Notes under the pieces: generated by a model
The model's input: the letters and a program-made list of their open reading frames with translations, nothing else
Told to the model about the DNA's origin: nothing
Database searches by the model: none
Source of the DNA: Asticcacaulis tiandongensis
GTDB taxonomy: Bacteria > Pseudomonadota > Alphaproteobacteria > Caulobacterales > Caulobacteraceae
Direction: 5' to 3'
Assembly: GCF_006475605.1 (NCBI RefSeq)
Contig: NZ_SSBC01000010.1
Coordinates: forward strand, 434,001-498,000
DNA length: 64,000 nucleotides
Part shown: positions 41,387 to 48,406 of the stretch, piece by piece
Numbering within the stretch: position 1 is the stretch's first letter
Layout of the letters: each line of letters starts with the position of its first letter
Program-made: the position numbers and the translations under genes

Positions 41387-42703
41387 ATGCGCCTGTCGCG
41401 CTTTTTGCTGCCCCTGCTCAAAGAAAACCCTTCTGAAGCCCAGATTGTCTCGCATCGCCTGATGTTGCGTACCGGCATGATCCGTCAGGAAGCCGCCGGT
41501 ATCTATGCCTGGTTGCCGCTGGGGCTTAAGGTGCTGCGCAAGATCGAAAAGATCGTGCATGAGGAAATGGCAAAGGCAGGGGCTATCGAGCTTTTGATGC
41601 CAACCTTGCAACTTGCGGATCTGTGGCGTGAGTCCGGTCGTTATGACGACTACGGTCAGGAAATGCTGCGTATCAAGGATCGCCATGAGCGCGATCTGCT
41701 ATACGGGCCGACCAACGAGGAAATGATCACCGAGATTTTCCGCGGCACGGTGAAATCCTATAAGGACCTGCCGCTTAATCTCTATCACATCCAGTGGAAG
41801 TTCCGTGACGAGCAGCGTCCGCGTTTCGGCGTGATGCGCGGGCGTGAATTCCTGATGAAGGATGCCTATAGCTTCGATATCGATGAAGCGGCGGCACGAC
41901 GTGCCTATAACCGCATGTTTATCGCCTATCTGAACACCTTTAACCGTCTGGGCCTCAAGGCCGTACCGATGCGTGCCGATACCGGCCCTATTGGCGGAGA
42001 CCTGAGTCACGAGTTCATCATTCTGGCCGATACGGGCGAAAGTGCCGTCTTCTGCCATAAGGATCTGGTGGACATGGCCGCACCCGGTCATGATGTGGAC
42101 TGGGATGACCTGCAAGCGCTTGTCGATGAGCGTACGGCACTCTATGCGGCGACCGAAGAAATGCATGACGAAAGCGCGTTTAATGCGGTGCCTGCCGATA
42201 AGCAGCTTTCGGCACGCGGTATCGAAGTGGGTCACATCTTCTATTTCGGCGAGAAATATTCTGCGCCTATGGGGGCAAAAGTCAGTGCGCCCGACGGCAC
42301 TCAGGTCAATGTCCATATGGGTTCTTATGGTATCGGGGTCTCGCGTCTGGTGGGCGGTATCATTGAGGCCAGCCATGACGAGAACGGCATCATCTGGCCC
42401 GACAGCGTGGCCCCCTTTGATGTCGCCGTGGTCAATCTGCGTGTCGGCGATGCAGCCTGTGATGAGGCCTGTGAAAAAGCCTATAAGGCGCTGACGGCAG
42501 CCGGTAAGGATGTTCTGTATAACGACACTGACGAACGGCCCGGTGCCAAGTTTGCCTCTATGGACCTGATCGGCGTACCCAAGCAGCTGATCATTGGCCC
42601 AAAGGGTATTGCCGAAGGTCAGGCAGAGCTTAAGGTTCGTGCCACCGGTGAGCGCGTAACCGAAAATTATGAAGCGCTTCTGGCGCGTCTGATTGCGGAA
42701 TAA
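41387..42703 (+). CDS. proS: Prolyl-tRNA synthetase
   Basis: Class II synthetase charging tRNA-Pro. 438 residues, the short alphaproteobacterial form lacking the INS editing domain of the E. coli enzyme. Motif 1 region is [20 protein letters not shown], motif 2 is [20 protein letters not shown] with [10 protein letters not shown], and motif 3 is [17 protein letters not shown]. The C-terminal anticodon-binding domain (about 340-438) follows. The next gene starts 3 bases later. Confidence 0.97.
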
Positions 42704-42706
42704 CCC

Positions 42707-44017
42707 ATGGCAAAAGCAGGGGCCAAGGCAGGGTCGTTTGATCTGAAGTCGTTGTTTTCAATTTCCGCGTGGGAATTCGATCTGGCCCTGCGTTACCTGC
42801 GCACCAAGCGTAAGGATGGTGGCATTGCCCTAATCGCTATAATCAGCTTTGTCGGTATCATGCTGGCGGTGGCGGTGCTGATTATCGTCATGTCCGTTAT
42901 GGGCGGCTTTCGCGACGAACTGGTGTCGCGACTGGTGGCATTCAACGGTCACGCCTATGTCTATGGTGCGCCTTTGACTGACTGGGAAAATCGTGACGAA
43001 ACCCTGAAACGGCTTGAGGCCATACCGGGTGTCAACAAGGCGTCGCCCTATATTGAATCCCCCGGACTGGCGCAGGGGCCGCATTCTCAGGCCGGCTTGG
43101 CCTATATGCGTGGCGTTGATGCCGAAGCGCTTAAAAATACCGACATCATTCGCGATAATATCAAGCAGGGTTCGTTTGAGGGCTTTGGTGAAGGTGATTT
43201 CGGCGGCGACCTGATCCTGATTGGTGAGGGGCTGGCGCGCAGCATGAGCGTTAATGCAGGGGATGAATTAACACTTCTATCACCTTCAGGATCAACAGCT
43301 TTTGGTGCCATGCCGCGCCGCAAGGCCTATACGATCGGCGGCGTGTTCAAAAGTGGCGTCAGTGAACTGGATGCCGCCTTTGTTTTTATGCCGATCGAGC
43401 AGGCACAGCTGTTCTTTGACCGTGAAGGCGAATGGGACGTCATCGAAATCAAGGTCGATGATCCCTATCATATCGCCAACTATCATCAGCCCTTGATGGA
43501 AGCGGCAGGGCAAGGGGCGCTGGTGCAGGACTGGACGCAGCGTAATGCAGCCATGTGGAATGCGCTTCAGGTTGAGCGCAATGTGATGCGTCTGATCCTT
43601 ATGCTGATTATCATGATTGCGGCGATGAACATTATTTCCGGCATAGTCATGCTGGTTAAAAACAAGACGCGTGACATTGCCATTCTAAGGACCTTCGGGG
43701 CTGACAGGGCGTCAATTACCCGGGTCTTTTTTCTGTCCGGTTCGATAATCGGGGCAGGGGGGACGCTGACCGGTCTGGTGGTCGGGACGCTGTTCTGCAT
43801 CTTCATTCAGCCTATTCAGAAGGCGGTTGAATACGTGTTTAACGTCAAGGTGTTCAACGAAGAAGTCTATTATCTTGCCTATATTCCGGCCAAGGTCGAG
43901 GTCAGCGAAGTCGCGATCATTGTTGTTTTTGCCATGTTATCCACCTGTGTGGCGACCCTGTTCCCCGCCCTGTGGGCCTCGAAACTGGAGCCGGTGGAGG
44001 CCTTGCGTAATGAGTAA
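42707..44017 (+). CDS. lolC: Lipoprotein-releasing ABC transporter permease (LolC/LolE)
   Basis: Membrane part of the LolCDE machine that releases lipoproteins from the inner membrane to LolA. 436 residues: an N-terminal helix (about 40-66), a large periplasmic domain (about 67-285), and three C-terminal helices (FtsX fold). The start FDLALRYLRTKRKDGGIALIA and the end [19 protein letters not shown] are typical. Alphaproteobacteria usually have one such permease gene (LolC/E or LolF-like) instead of two. It overlaps the ATPase gene by 8 bases. Confidence 0.93.
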   Translation: MAKAGAKAGSFDLKSLFSISAWEFDLALRYLRTKRKDGGIALIAIISFVGIMLAVAVLIIVMSVMGGFRDELVSRLVAFNGHAYVYGAPLTDWENRDETLKRLEAIPGVNKASPYIESPGLAQGPHSQAGLAYMRGVDAEALKNTDIIRDNIKQGSFEGFGEGDFGGDLILIGEGLARSMSVNAGDELTLLSPSGSTAFGAMPRRKAYTIGGVFKSGVSELDAAFVFMPIEQAQLFFDREGEWDVIEIKVDDPYHIANYHQPLMEAAGQGALVQDWTQRNAAMWNALQVERNVMRLILMLIIMIAAMNIISGIVMLVKNKTRDIAILRTFGADRASITRVFFLSGSIIGAGGTLTGLVVGTLFCIFIQPIQKAVEYVFNVKVFNEEVYYLAYIPAKVEVSEVAIIVVFAMLSTCVATLFPALWASKLEPVEALRNE

Positions 44018-44708
44018 TGTCATTCTCAGCCTGACGGGCCTGACCCATGCCTATGCCCTGGGGGACGGTCGACAACTTCAGGTGCTCAAAGGGGTTGATC
44101 TGGAACTGCGCGCCGGTGAAGTGGTTGGGCTGATCGGGCCTTCGGGGTCGGGCAAGTCTTCGCTGCTGCATTGTGTTGGCCTGCTTGAAGCGTCTGAAGA
44201 GGCGCGGCTGATCATTGATGATGAAGATTTCACGCGGGCTTCCGATGCGGCGCGGACACGCGCCCGTCTGCATAAGATCGGCTTTGTCTATCAGTTCCAT
44301 CATCTCTTGCCGGAATTTACGGCTCTGGGGAATGTGGCCTTACCGCAAAGGGTTCTGGGGCGTTCACAGAAAGAGGCCGAGGCACGGGCGCAGGCACTGC
44401 TTGAGCAAATGGGGCTGGGCGCGCGTCTGGAGCACCAACCCAATCAGATGTCAGGTGGCGAACAGCAGCGGGTAGCGATTGCACGGGCGCTGGCGAACCA
44501 ACCGAAGCTGCTGCTGGCCGATGAGCCAACCGGAAATCTGGATCCTGAGACATCACAGAACGTCTTTGATGCGCTTCGGAACATTGTTCATGAACAAAAG
44601 GTTGCGGCTTTGATTGCGACCCATAATCTGGGTCTGGCGCGGCATATGGATCGGGTAGTCAGTCTACAGGACGGCAAACTGGTCGAAATGATGCCGGAAG
44701 AGTTTTAA
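44010..44708 (+). CDS. lolD: Lipoprotein-releasing ABC transporter ATPase LolD
   Basis: ATPase of the Lol exporter. 232 residues from ATG 44010 (GGTGGAGG 9 bases upstream); the longer frame from 43827 lies inside the permease gene. Walker A is GPSGSGKSS, the Q-loop lies in [16 protein letters not shown], the signature is [15 protein letters not shown], Walker B is [14 protein letters not shown], and the switch His is in [12 protein letters not shown]. The PEF segment after the Q-loop matches LolD/MacB-type ATPases. Confidence 0.96.
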
Positions 44709-44762
44709 ATAATTTCATTATAAAACAACGGTGTACATTTTTTGTTCACGGTGTGGATGGTT

Positions 44763-44791
44763 TTGACTTGCGTGTGGAACAAATGGAGAAT
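44763..44791 (+). promoter_or_regulatory. Promoter of the sidA-like gene
   Basis: TTGACT (44763-44768) and GAGAAT (44786-44791) are separated by 17 bases, a reasonable -35/-10 pair. The LexA-like operator at 44777-44798 covers the spacer and -10, as expected for a repressed SOS promoter. Confidence 0.5.
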
Positions 44792-44798
44792 ATAGAAC
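44777..44798. promoter_or_regulatory. LexA-like operator (SOS box) upstream of the sidA-like gene
   Basis: GAAC (44777-44780), 7 bases, GAAT (44788-44791), 3 bases, GAAC (44795-44798). The alphaproteobacterial LexA site is the direct repeat GTTC-N7-GTTC, equivalent to GAAC-N7-GAAC on the other strand. Here one base differs in the second half-site. It lies about 40 bases before the small gene and overlaps the predicted promoter. Confidence 0.55.
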
Positions 44799-44839
44799 AA
44801 ATCATGAATTAATCTTCGGATCAAAAGGTGGATAATCCC

Positions 44840-44926
44840 ATGGCTGTTCTGCATAACCTGTTGTCATTCGCTTCCGTAACCGCTTTTGTAGTCGTGATGT
44901 GTCAGGTGGCTTCTCTGGTGGCGTGA
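44840..44926 (+). CDS. sidA: 28-residue membrane peptide, probable SidA (SOS-induced division inhibitor)
   Basis: ATG 44840 opens a 28-codon frame ending TGA 44924-44926, with AAGGTGG at 44825-44831. The peptide begins MAVLHNLLSFASVTAFVV and is one hydrophobic helix to the end, ending QVASLVA. In Caulobacter crescentus SidA is a 29-residue inner-membrane peptide encoded next to dnaE, induced by DNA damage through LexA, which blocks division by acting on FtsW/FtsN. Size, topology, location directly before dnaE and a LexA-like box in the promoter all agree. Not confirmed by alignment. An alternative is an uncharacterised small membrane peptide of another kind. Confidence 0.7.
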   Translation: MAVLHNLLSFASVTAFVVVMCQVASLVA

Positions 44927-44971
44927 ATCACCGGACATTGCGCCTGATTGATGAAGAAGGGCAGTTGAAAC

Positions 44972-47900
44972 ATGAGCGACGGATTTGTGCATTTACGTGT
45001 GCGCTCAGCCTATTCACTGCTTGAGGGGGCCATCAAGGCCTCCGAATTGGGCAAGCTTGCGCAAAAGGCGGGGCAACCGGCCGTCGCCATATGTGACCGT
45101 AGTAATCTGTTCGGTGCCCTCGAGTTCTCGCAGCTTTGCAAGGATACTGGCGTTCAGCCCATTATTGCCTGCGCCATACCCGTAAAAGGTATAGGCGGGA
45201 CGTCAGCGGAACGCTGGGCCAAGATCCCGACTATTGTCCTAATTGTACAAAATCAGCAGGGCTATCTCAATCTGACGGAACTGTCTTCCAAAGCCTATGT
45301 GGATATAGAGGCGACGGATGAGCCCCACGTTCTTTGGGAAGAGGTCGCGAAGCGTAGTGAGGGTCTTATATTGCTGTCAGGCGGACCCGATGGCCCGATT
45401 GATCCGCTGTACACGCAAAACCGGCCGGATGAAGCCGCCAGCGCCCTTAAGGCAATGCATGAGGTTTTTGGCGACCGGTTTTATATTGAGTTGCAACGCC
45501 ATGACGGAAGCCCGCATGGAGGCGTAAAAAATAGTCCTGCCGAAGTGGGGCTGGTGCGCTTTGCCTATGGGCATGATGTCCCGCTGGTGGCGACCAATGA
45601 TGTTTATTTTGCCGAAGCCGGTATGTTTAAGGCGCATGAAAGCCTTTTGTGCATTTCTGACAGTACCTTTTTAGGTGTTGCTGACCGGCGCAAGGTGACT
45701 CCGGATCACTGGTTTAAGCCTGCGGCTCTGATGCGGGAAAGTTTCTCTGATCTGCCGGAAGCTTGTGATAATACGTTGGAAATTGCCAAACGTTGTGCGT
45801 TTCTGGTGCCTAAACATGATCCGATCCTGCCGCGATTTGATACGGGGGCAGGGCGCGATGAAAACGAAGAACTGGCGTTTCAGGCGCGAGAAGGGCTAAA
45901 AAAACGCCTTACTGAGGTAACACCTGCGTTTCCTGAGCAGGATTACTGGGATCGGCTTGAGCGTGAAATCGGTGTTATCCAGAGAATGGGGTTTCCCGGT
46001 TACTTTCTGATCGTTTCGGATTTTATCAAATGGGCCAAAAGCCATGATATACCAGTCGGGCCGGGGCGGGGTTCGGGGGCCGGTTCACTTGTGGCCTGGG
46101 CGCTTTTGATTACTGATCTTGATCCCCTGCGGTTTGGCCTGCTGTTTGAACGCTTCCTGAATCCTGAACGGGTATCCATGCCCGACTTTGATATCGATTT
46201 CTGTCAGGAACGCCGCGAAGAAGTCATCTCCTATGTTCAGGAGAAGTATGGTCGTAAGCGCGTGGCGCAGATCATTACCTTTGGTACGCTTCAGGCGCGG
46301 GCCGTTTTACGGGACACGGGGCGCGTTATGCAACTGCCGTTGGGGCAGGTGGATCGTCTGTGTAAGATGGTGCCCAACAATCCGGCCAATCCGACGACAC
46401 TGGCTCAGGCGGTGGAAATTGAACCGCGTCTGCGTGAGGCCCGCGACGAGGAAGAGGCTGTAGCCAAGCTTCTTGATACAGCCCTAAAACTGGAGGGGCT
46501 TTATCGTAACGCCTCCACGCACGCCGCAGGGATTGTGATTGGTGATCGTGATCTGACGCAACTGGTGCCGCTGTATCGCGATCCGCGCTCGGATATTCCG
46601 GCGACCCAGTTTAATATGAAGTGGGTTGAAAGCGCGGGATTGGTAAAGTTCGACTTTCTGGGCCTGAAAACCCTGACGGTACTGAATCGCGCCTGGCATT
46701 ATCTGAAAAAACGTGGCGTTGAGGTGAATTACTCCACCTTGCCGCTGGACGATAAAGCGACTTATGAATTGCTGGCCTCGGGGCAATCGATTGGGGTGTT
46801 CCAGCTTGAAAGTCAGGGTATGCGTGACACCCTGCGCAAGATGCGCTGTGGGTCGATTGAGGAAATTACCGCCCTGATTTCGCTCTATCGTCCCGGGCCA
46901 ATGGACAATATCGATACCTATGTCGACCGTAAGTTTGGTCGCGCTGATATTGATATGCTTCACCCGTCTCTGGAGCCTGTGCTCAAGGAAACCTATGGGG
47001 TGATTATCTATCAGGAACAGGTGATGCAGATCGCGCAGATACTTTCCGGATACAGCCTTGGCGAAGCTGACCTTTTGCGGAGGGCCATGGGTAAGAAAAA
47101 TAAAGACGAAATGGACCGGCAAAAGGCAAGGTTCATTTCGGGTGCCAAGGAAAAGAACGTACCGGAAAAAAAATCTGACAGTATTTTTGAACTGGTCAAC
47201 AAGTTCGCCGGCTATGGTTTCAACAAATCACACGCCGCTGCCTATGCGTTCATTTCGTATCAGACTGGCTGGTTGAAAGCGAACCATCCGGTTGAATTTT
47301 TTGCCGCCAACATGAGTCTTGATATCGCCAACACAGACAAACTGGCGGTATTTTATCAGGATGCGCGGCAATTTGGCGTGACCATTCGCCCGCCGGATAT
47401 TAATCGTTCCATGGCCGATTTTGATGTGGAAAATGGTGAAGTGCTTTATGCGCTTGGGGCTATACGCAATGTTGGCCTTGAGGCTATGCAGACCGTGGTT
47501 GCGGTGCGCGAAGAGGGGGGCAAGTTTAAGGATTTGTTTGACTTCCTTGAACGTATCGACCCGAAATCGGTAAACAAGCGGGCAATCGAAAATCTGGCGC
47601 GGGCCGGTGCATTTGACTCGATCCATCCCAACCGCACGCAAATTGTGCAATCGGCGGATATATTGGTGGCCTATGCGCAATCGGTTGCGGCGGAGCGCGC
47701 CGCCGCGCAGGTCAGTTTATTTGGTGGCAGCGCTGCATCGCGCCCGCGCCTGCCGAATGTGGCTAAGGCGGCATCTTCCGACAGTCTGGATGAAGAGCTG
47801 TCGGCGGTCGGATTTTATCTGTCCGGCCATCCGTTGCAGGACATGCTTGATGTATTTAAGCGCCGTAATGTGACCTTGTTTGCTGAGGCGATGGCATTGG

Positions 47901-48406
47901 CACAGGAAGGGCGCGAGGCCTTCCGTATGGCCGGTGTCGTGCGCAGACGTCAGGAGCGGGCTTCGGCACGAACCGGAGAAAAGTTCGCCTTTGTGACCTT
48001 GTCTGACCCCAGCGGTGAATATGAAGTGCTGTTCCAACCGGAAGCCTTGCGCAAATATCGGGAAAACCTCGAGCCGGGGCAATCGATTATTGTCAGGGTG
48101 CGGTGTAAGGGCAGTGACGGTGAGGTGCGCTTCTTTGGTGAGGCGGCGGAACCGATGAGCGGCAGTCTGAAGACTGACGATATGGGCTTACGGGTGCATG
48201 TCAGTGCCCGTCATTTCGATCTGGCGGCCTTTAAGGCCAGTCTGGACGCGGCACGTAGTCGCGAAGGTGGAGAAATCACCGTATTTGGTGATATTGATAA
48301 CCAGCGTGAGGTCGAACTTAAGTTGCCGGATCGGTACAGACTGGACGGCACCTTAAGAGGGGCTTTAAATGTCATGACAGGCGTGGTTTATTGTGAAGAT
48401 GTCTGA
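44972..48406 (+). CDS. dnaE: DNA polymerase III alpha subunit
   Basis: Replicative polymerase. 1144 residues: PHP domain at the N-terminus ([18 protein letters not shown]), where the metal-binding His-x-His pattern of active PHP domains reads His-Leu-Arg, so intrinsic proofreading is unlikely. The palm has catalytic aspartates in [13 protein letters not shown], then the fingers with [16 protein letters not shown], the HhH region (about 850-900) and an OB domain (about 985-1060). This is the main DnaE, not the DnaE2/ImuC mutasome version. It follows the sidA-like gene by 45 bases. Confidence 0.97.

What the first reader, a model, noticed from the sequence alone, without database searches (positions are those of the whole stretch)
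44840..44926. Unlabelled 28-codon gene before dnaE is a probable SidA division inhibitor
Seen: a clean ATG-TGA frame with a ribosome-binding site, encoding a single hydrophobic helix, sitting alone between lolD and dnaE. Known: Caulobacter SidA is a 29-residue inner-membrane peptide, induced by DNA damage via LexA, that inhibits division through FtsW/FtsN, and its gene (CC1927, as I recall) neighbours dnaE. Inferred: this is its orthologue, and such short genes are routinely missed by annotation.
Basis: partly seen in the sequence, partly recalled or inferred. Interest (0 to 1): 0.82.

Follow-up and report, generated by a model that had tools for sequence, protein, structure and literature searches.

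The report
SidA division inhibitor before dnaE
A 28-residue membrane peptide gene in front of the DNA polymerase gene dnaE is, by sequence, place and promoter, this bacterium's version of SidA, a known peptide that stops cell division after DNA damage; it is an ordinary family member, though too divergent to pass NCBI's own SidA score cut-off.

Summary
Window 44840-44926 is a real gene and an orthologue of Caulobacter SidA. NCBIfam's SidA model is its only hit in that library (E 8e-5, 22.5 bits, below the cut-off of 35). The peptide is in 25 of 25 genus genomes searched, each time directly before dnaE, under purifying selection (pN/pS 0.42). Named Caulobacter vibrioides DSM 9893 has its SidA (72.4 bits) in the same place. 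Of 90 distinct loci, 89 have a box (the 90th is cut off) and 81 a tandem pair. The same genome has full boxes before recA and lexA. Action on FtsW/FtsN is inferred from Caulobacter papers, not tested. Added here: 0 of 25 genus genomes reach the SidA cut-off; the N-terminal charged segment of other SidAs is replaced; dnaE follows sidA by a median of 35 nt in 101 loci, so dnaE may share the SOS-controlled transcript. New member of a known kind.

The parts
44840..44926 (+). sidA coding sequence, 28 residues plus TGA
   Evidence: in 25 of 25 genus genomes searched, ATG kept; NF033228 E 8.1e-5, below cut-off
44825..44831 (+). Shine-Dalgarno-like AAGGTGG, 8 nt before the ATG
   Evidence: read
44777..44791 (+). 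LexA-type box 1, GAACAAATGGAGAAT (7 of 8 to GAAC-N7-GAAC)
   Evidence: consensus GTTCN7GTTC as quoted in PMC4211646 and PMC12700426 (passages)
44795..44809 (+). LexA-type box 2, GAACAAATCATGAAT (7 of 8), 18 nt after the start of box 1
44768..44796 (+). probable promoter: -35 TTGCGT 44768-44773, 17 nt spacer, -10 TATAGA 44791-44796, overlapped by both boxes; the consensus scan instead reported TTGACT 44763-44768 with GAGAAT 44786-44791
   Evidence: read and the aligned promoters; scan (1 found, 0.6 expected, so weak by itself)
44972..48406 (+). dnaE, 45 nt downstream of sidA, possibly on the same transcript
   Evidence: NF004226 1420 bits; gap; 0 terminator-like sites in 44600-45100, 0.6 expected
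44010..44708 (+). lolD, upstream neighbour
   Evidence: best hit TIGR02211 3.5e-73, 245.7 bits, below its cut-off of 307.75

Best explanation
This is sidA. In undamaged cells LexA sits on two tandem boxes that overlap the spacer and -10 of the promoter and keeps it off (inferred from sequence). DNA damage leads to LexA self-cleavage and the promoter fires; the 28-residue single-helix peptide is made, inserts in the inner membrane and binds the late divisome (FtsW, FtsN), holding FtsW/FtsI/FtsN in an inactive state so that septation waits for repair (inferred from published work on C. crescentus SidA). Shown here: the frame, its conservation, its kinship and place, the boxes. Inferred: induction, membrane location, target, effect.
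For: SidA is the only NCBIfam hit up to E 1. Peptide in 25 of 25 genus genomes and, at E 0.02-0.6, in 4 of 12 other genomes of the family; 29 of the 30 hits lie before dnaE on the same strand, the 30th (G056, inside a 501-residue frame) has no dnaE and is taken as chance. NF033228 passes its cut-off in 185 of 299 Caulobacteraceae genomes. Named loci: SidA before dnaE in 36 of 38 Caulobacteraceae-type loci L073-L110 (grouped by me: 67% or more DnaE identity; the 2 misses have only 42 and 59 nt of DNA before dnaE), and no score above zero in 23 other alphaproteobacterial loci of L111-L134 (the 24th, L133, is a contig-end fragment). C. vibrioides DSM 9893 SidA scores 72.4 bits and shares 12 of the window peptide's 28 residues. 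pN/pS 0.42. At least one box in 89 of 90 distinct loci (9.9 after shuffling), a tandem pair in 81 of 90 (0.055 after shuffling). GAACAAANNNNGAAY occurs 6 times in the genome (reversed control 1); 2 of the 6 are these boxes. Full boxes stand before recA, lexA, dinB and radA in the same genome. FtsW F145 and A246, whose change suppresses SidA in C. crescentus (PMC4211646), are kept in 36 of 36 FtsWs read.
Against: The window peptide is below the NCBIfam cut-off (22.5 against 35) and matches only from residue 8, profile positions 9-29; in a whole-genome search its E is 0.003. NF033228 at loose E-values is not specific: at E 0.05 it also rings in E. coli and B. subtilis, and at E 10 in 9 of 14 control genomes. 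The N-terminus lacks the charged segment (MIRVARES in C. vibrioides) and the peptide has no charged residue. FtsW residue 31, where A31K blocks SidA but not DidA in C. crescentus, is S here and L, F or M in 17 of 18 genus FtsWs. Both boxes are 7 of 8, and the bare pattern GAACN7GAAC is barely enriched in the genome (61 against 49 for the reversed control). No expression or phenotype data were available.
Confidence: 0.92

Rival explanations
1. A family member that has lost or changed its divisome target in this genus: it still inserts in the membrane under LexA but does something else.
For: N-terminal charged segment replaced, no charged residue; FtsW position 31 changed in this genus.
Against: V13, F16, V17 and C21 (window numbering) are invariant in the 19 sequences aligned, though not in all relatives: of the 10 other-genus peptides, L038 has L for F, and L038, L039 and L040 lack the C. 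FtsW F145 and A246 are kept in 36 of 36. Two boxes in 25 of 25 genus loci.
Confidence: 0.1
2. The short frame is a regulatory leader peptide for dnaE: its translation or stalling tunes dnaE, and the membrane helix is incidental.
For: dnaE starts a median of 35 nt after the stop in 101 loci, and the linkage holds in the loci examined across the family.
Against: The amino-acid sequence is under purifying selection and homologous to a protein with a reported divisome function (PMC4211646, passages). In C. crescentus sidA served as a positive control in an assay of motility and division defects (PMC4117421, figure-legend passage).
Confidence: 0.05
3. A chance open frame.
For: 70 frames of 20 aa or more overlap 42500-47500.
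Against: Present in 25 of 25 genus genomes searched with a conserved ATG, purifying selection, 0 of 5000 shuffles reach the alignment score to C. vibrioides SidA.
Confidence: 0.01

Closest known systems
SidA of Caulobacter crescentus/vibrioides (NCBIfam NF033228)
   Same: Length (28 against 29), single hydrophobic helix, shared residues in the helix, place directly before dnaE, LexA-type boxes in the promoter
   Different: 12 of 28 residues identical; MIRVARES start replaced by MAVLHNLL, no Arg or Glu; below the NCBIfam cut-off
DidA of C. crescentus
   Same: Small single-helix division inhibitor thought to act on FtsW/FtsI/FtsN (PMC4211646, passages)
   Different: DidA is 71 residues, SOS-independent and binds FtsN; this gene is 28 codons with LexA-type boxes
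YneA, SosA and SulA, SOS-induced division inhibitors of other bacteria
   Same: Logic: a damage-induced stop of division (PMC13396833 and PMC6851548: start of abstract in the listing; SulA: PMC4211646, passages)
   Different: No sequence kinship claimed or tested

Membership tests
SidA | About 29 residues with one hydrophobic helix | tested here: met
   28 residues, best 19-residue hydropathy 2.13 against 2.08 for C. vibrioides SidA
SidA | Match to the SidA profile NF033228 | tested here: inconclusive
   Only NCBIfam hit, E 8.1e-5, 22.5 bits over profile positions 9-29, below the cut-off of 35; 10 genomes of other genera score 28.5-65.3 bits and genus members up to 26.2
SidA | Position directly before dnaE, same strand | tested here: met
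   Window; 29 of 30 peptide hits; C. vibrioides DSM 9893 and OR37
SidA | LexA operator in the promoter | tested here: met
   By sequence only: two boxes, 7 of 8 each; a box at 89 of 90 distinct loci, the 90th cut off
SidA | Damage-induced, LexA-dependent expression | not testable with these tools
   needs RNA
SidA | Inner-membrane location and binding to FtsW/FtsN | not testable with these tools
   needs experiment; the peptide is below the fold tool's 30-residue limit
SidA | Overproduction blocks division | not testable with these tools
   needs experiment
DidA | 71 residues, SOS-independent (PMC4211646) | tested here: not met
   28 residues with LexA-type boxes

The most novel reading that the evidence does not exclude
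sidA and dnaE form one LexA-governed transcript across the Caulobacteraceae: DNA damage stops division and at the same time raises the replicative polymerase, and in calm conditions the essential dnaE depends on promoter leakage, read-through from lolD or a start hidden inside sidA. In the window's genus a DnaA-type site just upstream (22 of 25 loci) may tie the same unit to replication initiation, though the window's own copy has two mismatches.
Probability: 0.3. Interest if true: 0.6.

Novelty: new member of a known kind. Interest (0 to 1): 0.36.

Why it matters
It extends a checkpoint peptide studied in Caulobacter to a genus where NCBI's model scores it below its cut-off, with a changed N-terminus beside a changed FtsW residue 31: a natural variant set for mapping how so small a peptide stops the FtsW/FtsI/FtsN machine. 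The tight sidA-dnaE spacing raises a direct question that I did not find addressed in the papers searched: whether LexA also sets the level of the replicative polymerase.

Tried and rejected
Chance frame, leader peptide, changed target and DidA were considered (see rivals and membership). Pfam has no family for the peptide up to E 1. The hit in G056 (L030) lies inside a 501-residue frame without dnaE and was taken as chance. Weak NF033228 hits inside long frames (for example 443-residue frames about 2 kb from sidA in G002, G008 and G013) were taken as chance likeness between membrane helices; the weak hits in order-level genomes were not followed. In one search the sidA locus itself is hit in 21 of 25 genus genomes; in G006, G007, G009 and G014 it is not, and there the locus rests on the window-peptide search. 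In one search 34 of 299 genomes have no match at E 0.05; 19 of the 20 such genomes that are listed belong to the window's genus, 14 more are not listed.

Limits and errors. One search failed (a file not yet laid). One search labelled FtsW residues wrongly; superseded. One search used a faulty pattern for the DnaA count; superseded. One search used a wrong frame for lolD; repeated. One search counted DnaA-type sites against shuffles (22 of 25, 3.3 expected); one search repeats it against 200 permuted motifs (0 reach 22). These loci are related by descent, so such counts overstate independence. The pN/pS is an uncorrected Nei-Gojobori sum over all pairs of 21 sequences; pairs are not independent and pS is high. 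Shuffles permute two-base blocks. dnaE starts are the start codon nearest the aligned start, some GTG or TTG, so single gaps are approximate. Dropped before counts: and one search left out L026-L029, L041 and L042 (same loci as others), L030 (chance), L081 and L104 (no upstream DNA); one search then merged 11 of 101 as duplicates by the last 110 upstream bases. L039, L083 and L084 were kept although the matched first codon is not ATG. In one search L035 dropped out for want of the box pattern. FtsW was read in 36 genomes (8, 28), best TIGR02614 match each; many, the window's own included (333.6 against 337.5), lie just below that cut-off; G014 had no match at 1e-88. LexA-box context: I picked 17 of the 34 box loci by eye, and those loci cover only 30 of the 61 GAACN7GAAC sites, so it is no unbiased sample; 6 of the 17 (L138, L155, L157, L160, L161, L164) showed no recognised repair gene or lie inside frames. 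Nine proteins were scanned.

Paper searches. Papers were seen as passages (PMC4211646, PMC4117421, PMC12700426, PMC13384398, PMC1839093) or as listings only (the rest). The original SidA paper (reference 13 of PMC4211646) was not seen. How the public annotation of this genome labels the stretch was not checked.

Full report
What is there. It has no charged residue and a hydropathy peak like that of C. vibrioides SidA.

Is it a gene. The peptide was searched in the window's genome and 60 relatives: 30 of 61 matched at E <= 10, among them 25 of 25 of the genus and 4 of 12 other genomes of the family. 29 of the 30 lie upstream of dnaE on the same strand; the other, inside a 501-residue frame, is taken as chance. 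Twenty-one distinct DNA sequences of the genus give pN 0.230 and pS 0.551, ratio 0.42, with the ATG kept in 25 of 25.

Is it SidA. NCBIfam NF033228, cell division inhibitor SidA, is the only NCBIfam family that hits it up to E 1: E 8.1e-5, 22.5 bits, profile positions 9-29, cut-off 35. Over 61 genomes the model passes its cut-off in 7, all of other genera of the family, and in 0 of 25 of the window's genus; the window's own locus gets 20.2 bits, E 0.003. Over 299 Caulobacteraceae genomes it passes in 185 and has a match at E <= 0.05 in 265; at that loose level it also rings in E. coli and B. subtilis, so the 265 may include chance hits. One of 14 control genomes is over the cut-off; the output does not say which, but C. 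vibrioides is among those that ring, and a named C. vibrioides locus scores 72.4 bits.

A named scan with a Caulobacter DnaE start gave 62 loci. In 36 of the 38 Caulobacteraceae-type loci (67% or more DnaE identity, my grouping) a SidA peptide lies before dnaE, including C. vibrioides DSM 9893 and OR37; the two misses have 42 and 59 nt before dnaE. Of the 23 other alphaproteobacterial loci none scores above zero within 400 nt; L133, a contig-end fragment, says nothing (a profile of mine from 14 peptides). DSM 9893 SidA shares 12 of the window peptide's 28 residues, score 49 against 8.8 (SD 5.8) for shuffles, 0 of 5000 as high. In 19 sequences M1, V13, F16, V17 and C21 (window numbering) are invariant, but wider relatives depart: L038 lacks the F, and L038, L039 and L040 lack the C. 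So the gene is an orthologue by sequence, place and promoter, though below the curated score.

How it is controlled. Caulobacter LexA binds GTTCN7GTTC (PMC4211646 and PMC12700426, passages), GAACN7GAAC on the other strand. The window has GAACAAATGGAGAAT (44777-44791) and GAACAAATCATGAAT (44795-44809), each 7 of 8. Over 90 distinct upstream regions 89 have at least one such box (9.9 after shuffling; the 90th, L086, has only 24 nt before the gene) and 81 have two at a pitch of 15-19 nt (0.055 after shuffling). The aligned promoters commonly show TTGC or TTGAC some 9-11 nt before the first box and ATA or ATG between boxes, so I read -35 TTGCGT 44768-44773 and -10 TATAGA 44791-44796 with both boxes over them; the consensus scan preferred TTGACT with GAGAAT.

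The same genome. GAACN7GAAC occurs 61 times against 49 for the reversed control, so the bare pattern is barely enriched. In 17 of 34 box loci that I picked by eye, boxes stand before recA, lexA (two), dinB, radA, a YifB-type ATPase and a PA0069-type radical SAM gene, all over their NCBIfam cut-offs, and at the start of an AAA ATPase with likeness to RarA that is below cut-offs; others stand before a tyrosine recombinase and an MFS transporter, and 6 of the 17 show no recognised repair gene. The tighter GAACAAANNNNGAAY occurs 6 times against 1 for the control, and 2 of the 6 are the sidA boxes. lexA lies about 24 kb downstream of sidA, outside the window.

How it most likely works. From C. [quoted passage not shown] SidA and DidA are proposed to promote an inactive state of FtsW/FtsI/FtsN (PMC4211646, passages). 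I transfer that mechanism by orthology; no step of it was tested here. Two observations qualify the transfer. The N-terminal charged segment seen in the other-genus SidAs is replaced in the 25 genus peptides. And FtsW residue 31, where A31K blocks SidA but not DidA in C. crescentus, is A, V, G, S or T in 18 of 18 FtsWs of other genera but L, F or M in 17 of 18 of this genus, S in the window's own. That may be a joint change of a contact, or only the shared descent of one clade. Residues 145 and 246 are unchanged in 36 of 36.

What the neighbourhood suggests. dnaE starts a median of 35 nt (11-171) after sidA in 101 loci, duplicates included. No terminator-like site was found in 44600-45100, but only 0.6 were expected. 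There is often little room for a separate dnaE promoter, so sidA and dnaE may well share RNA; a start inside sidA is not excluded. Whether dnaE rises with SOS is open; I found no statement on it in the papers searched (passages of PMC4211646 and PMC12700426). In the genus a DnaA-type site (recalled motif TTATNCACA, at most one mismatch) lies upstream of box 1 in 22 of 25 loci, against 0 of 30 Caulobacter-type and 0 of 9 other-genus loci; 0 of 200 permuted motifs do as well in the genus. The window is one of the 3 without it; its best copy has two mismatches (and reading).

Verdict. Reader supported. The organism is a Caulobacteraceae genus of which 25 genomes were searched; Asticcacaulis is my guess from recall, not from a call, and 'Caulobacter-type' for g32 rests on shared contigs with named loci. 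New member of a known kind, with a score gap in the standard model and one good open question about dnaE.

Noticed in passing
window 44927-44972; gaps in 101 loci: dnaE follows sidA so closely (median 35 nt) that the replicative polymerase gene may lie on an SOS-controlled transcript.
   Followed up: partly
22-27 nt (in some loci 55-75 nt) upstream of LexA box 1, genus loci L002-L025: DnaA-type site in 22 of 25 genus loci, in 0 of 30 Caulobacter-type loci; absent at one mismatch from the window, L006 and L007.
   Followed up: partly
FtsW residue 31 (L170-L177, L180-L207): Small residue in 18 of 18 other-genus FtsWs, bulky in 17 of 18 of the window's genus, alongside the changed SidA N-terminus.
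   Followed up: partly
L139, box at 1501-1515, dinB from 1567: A full LexA-type box stands before dinB in this genome, whereas earlier work is cited as finding no evidence of SOS control of dinB in C. crescentus (PMC1839093, passage).
   Followed up: no
L162, box at 1501-1515, gene from 1611: A LexA-type box precedes an MFS transporter with distant likeness to the Tet efflux family, far below cut-offs.
   Followed up: no
Brevundimonas terrae, L097: Very divergent SidA-type peptide (27.9 bits in my own profile) before dnaE, with two full boxes upstream but not as a close tandem.
   Followed up: no
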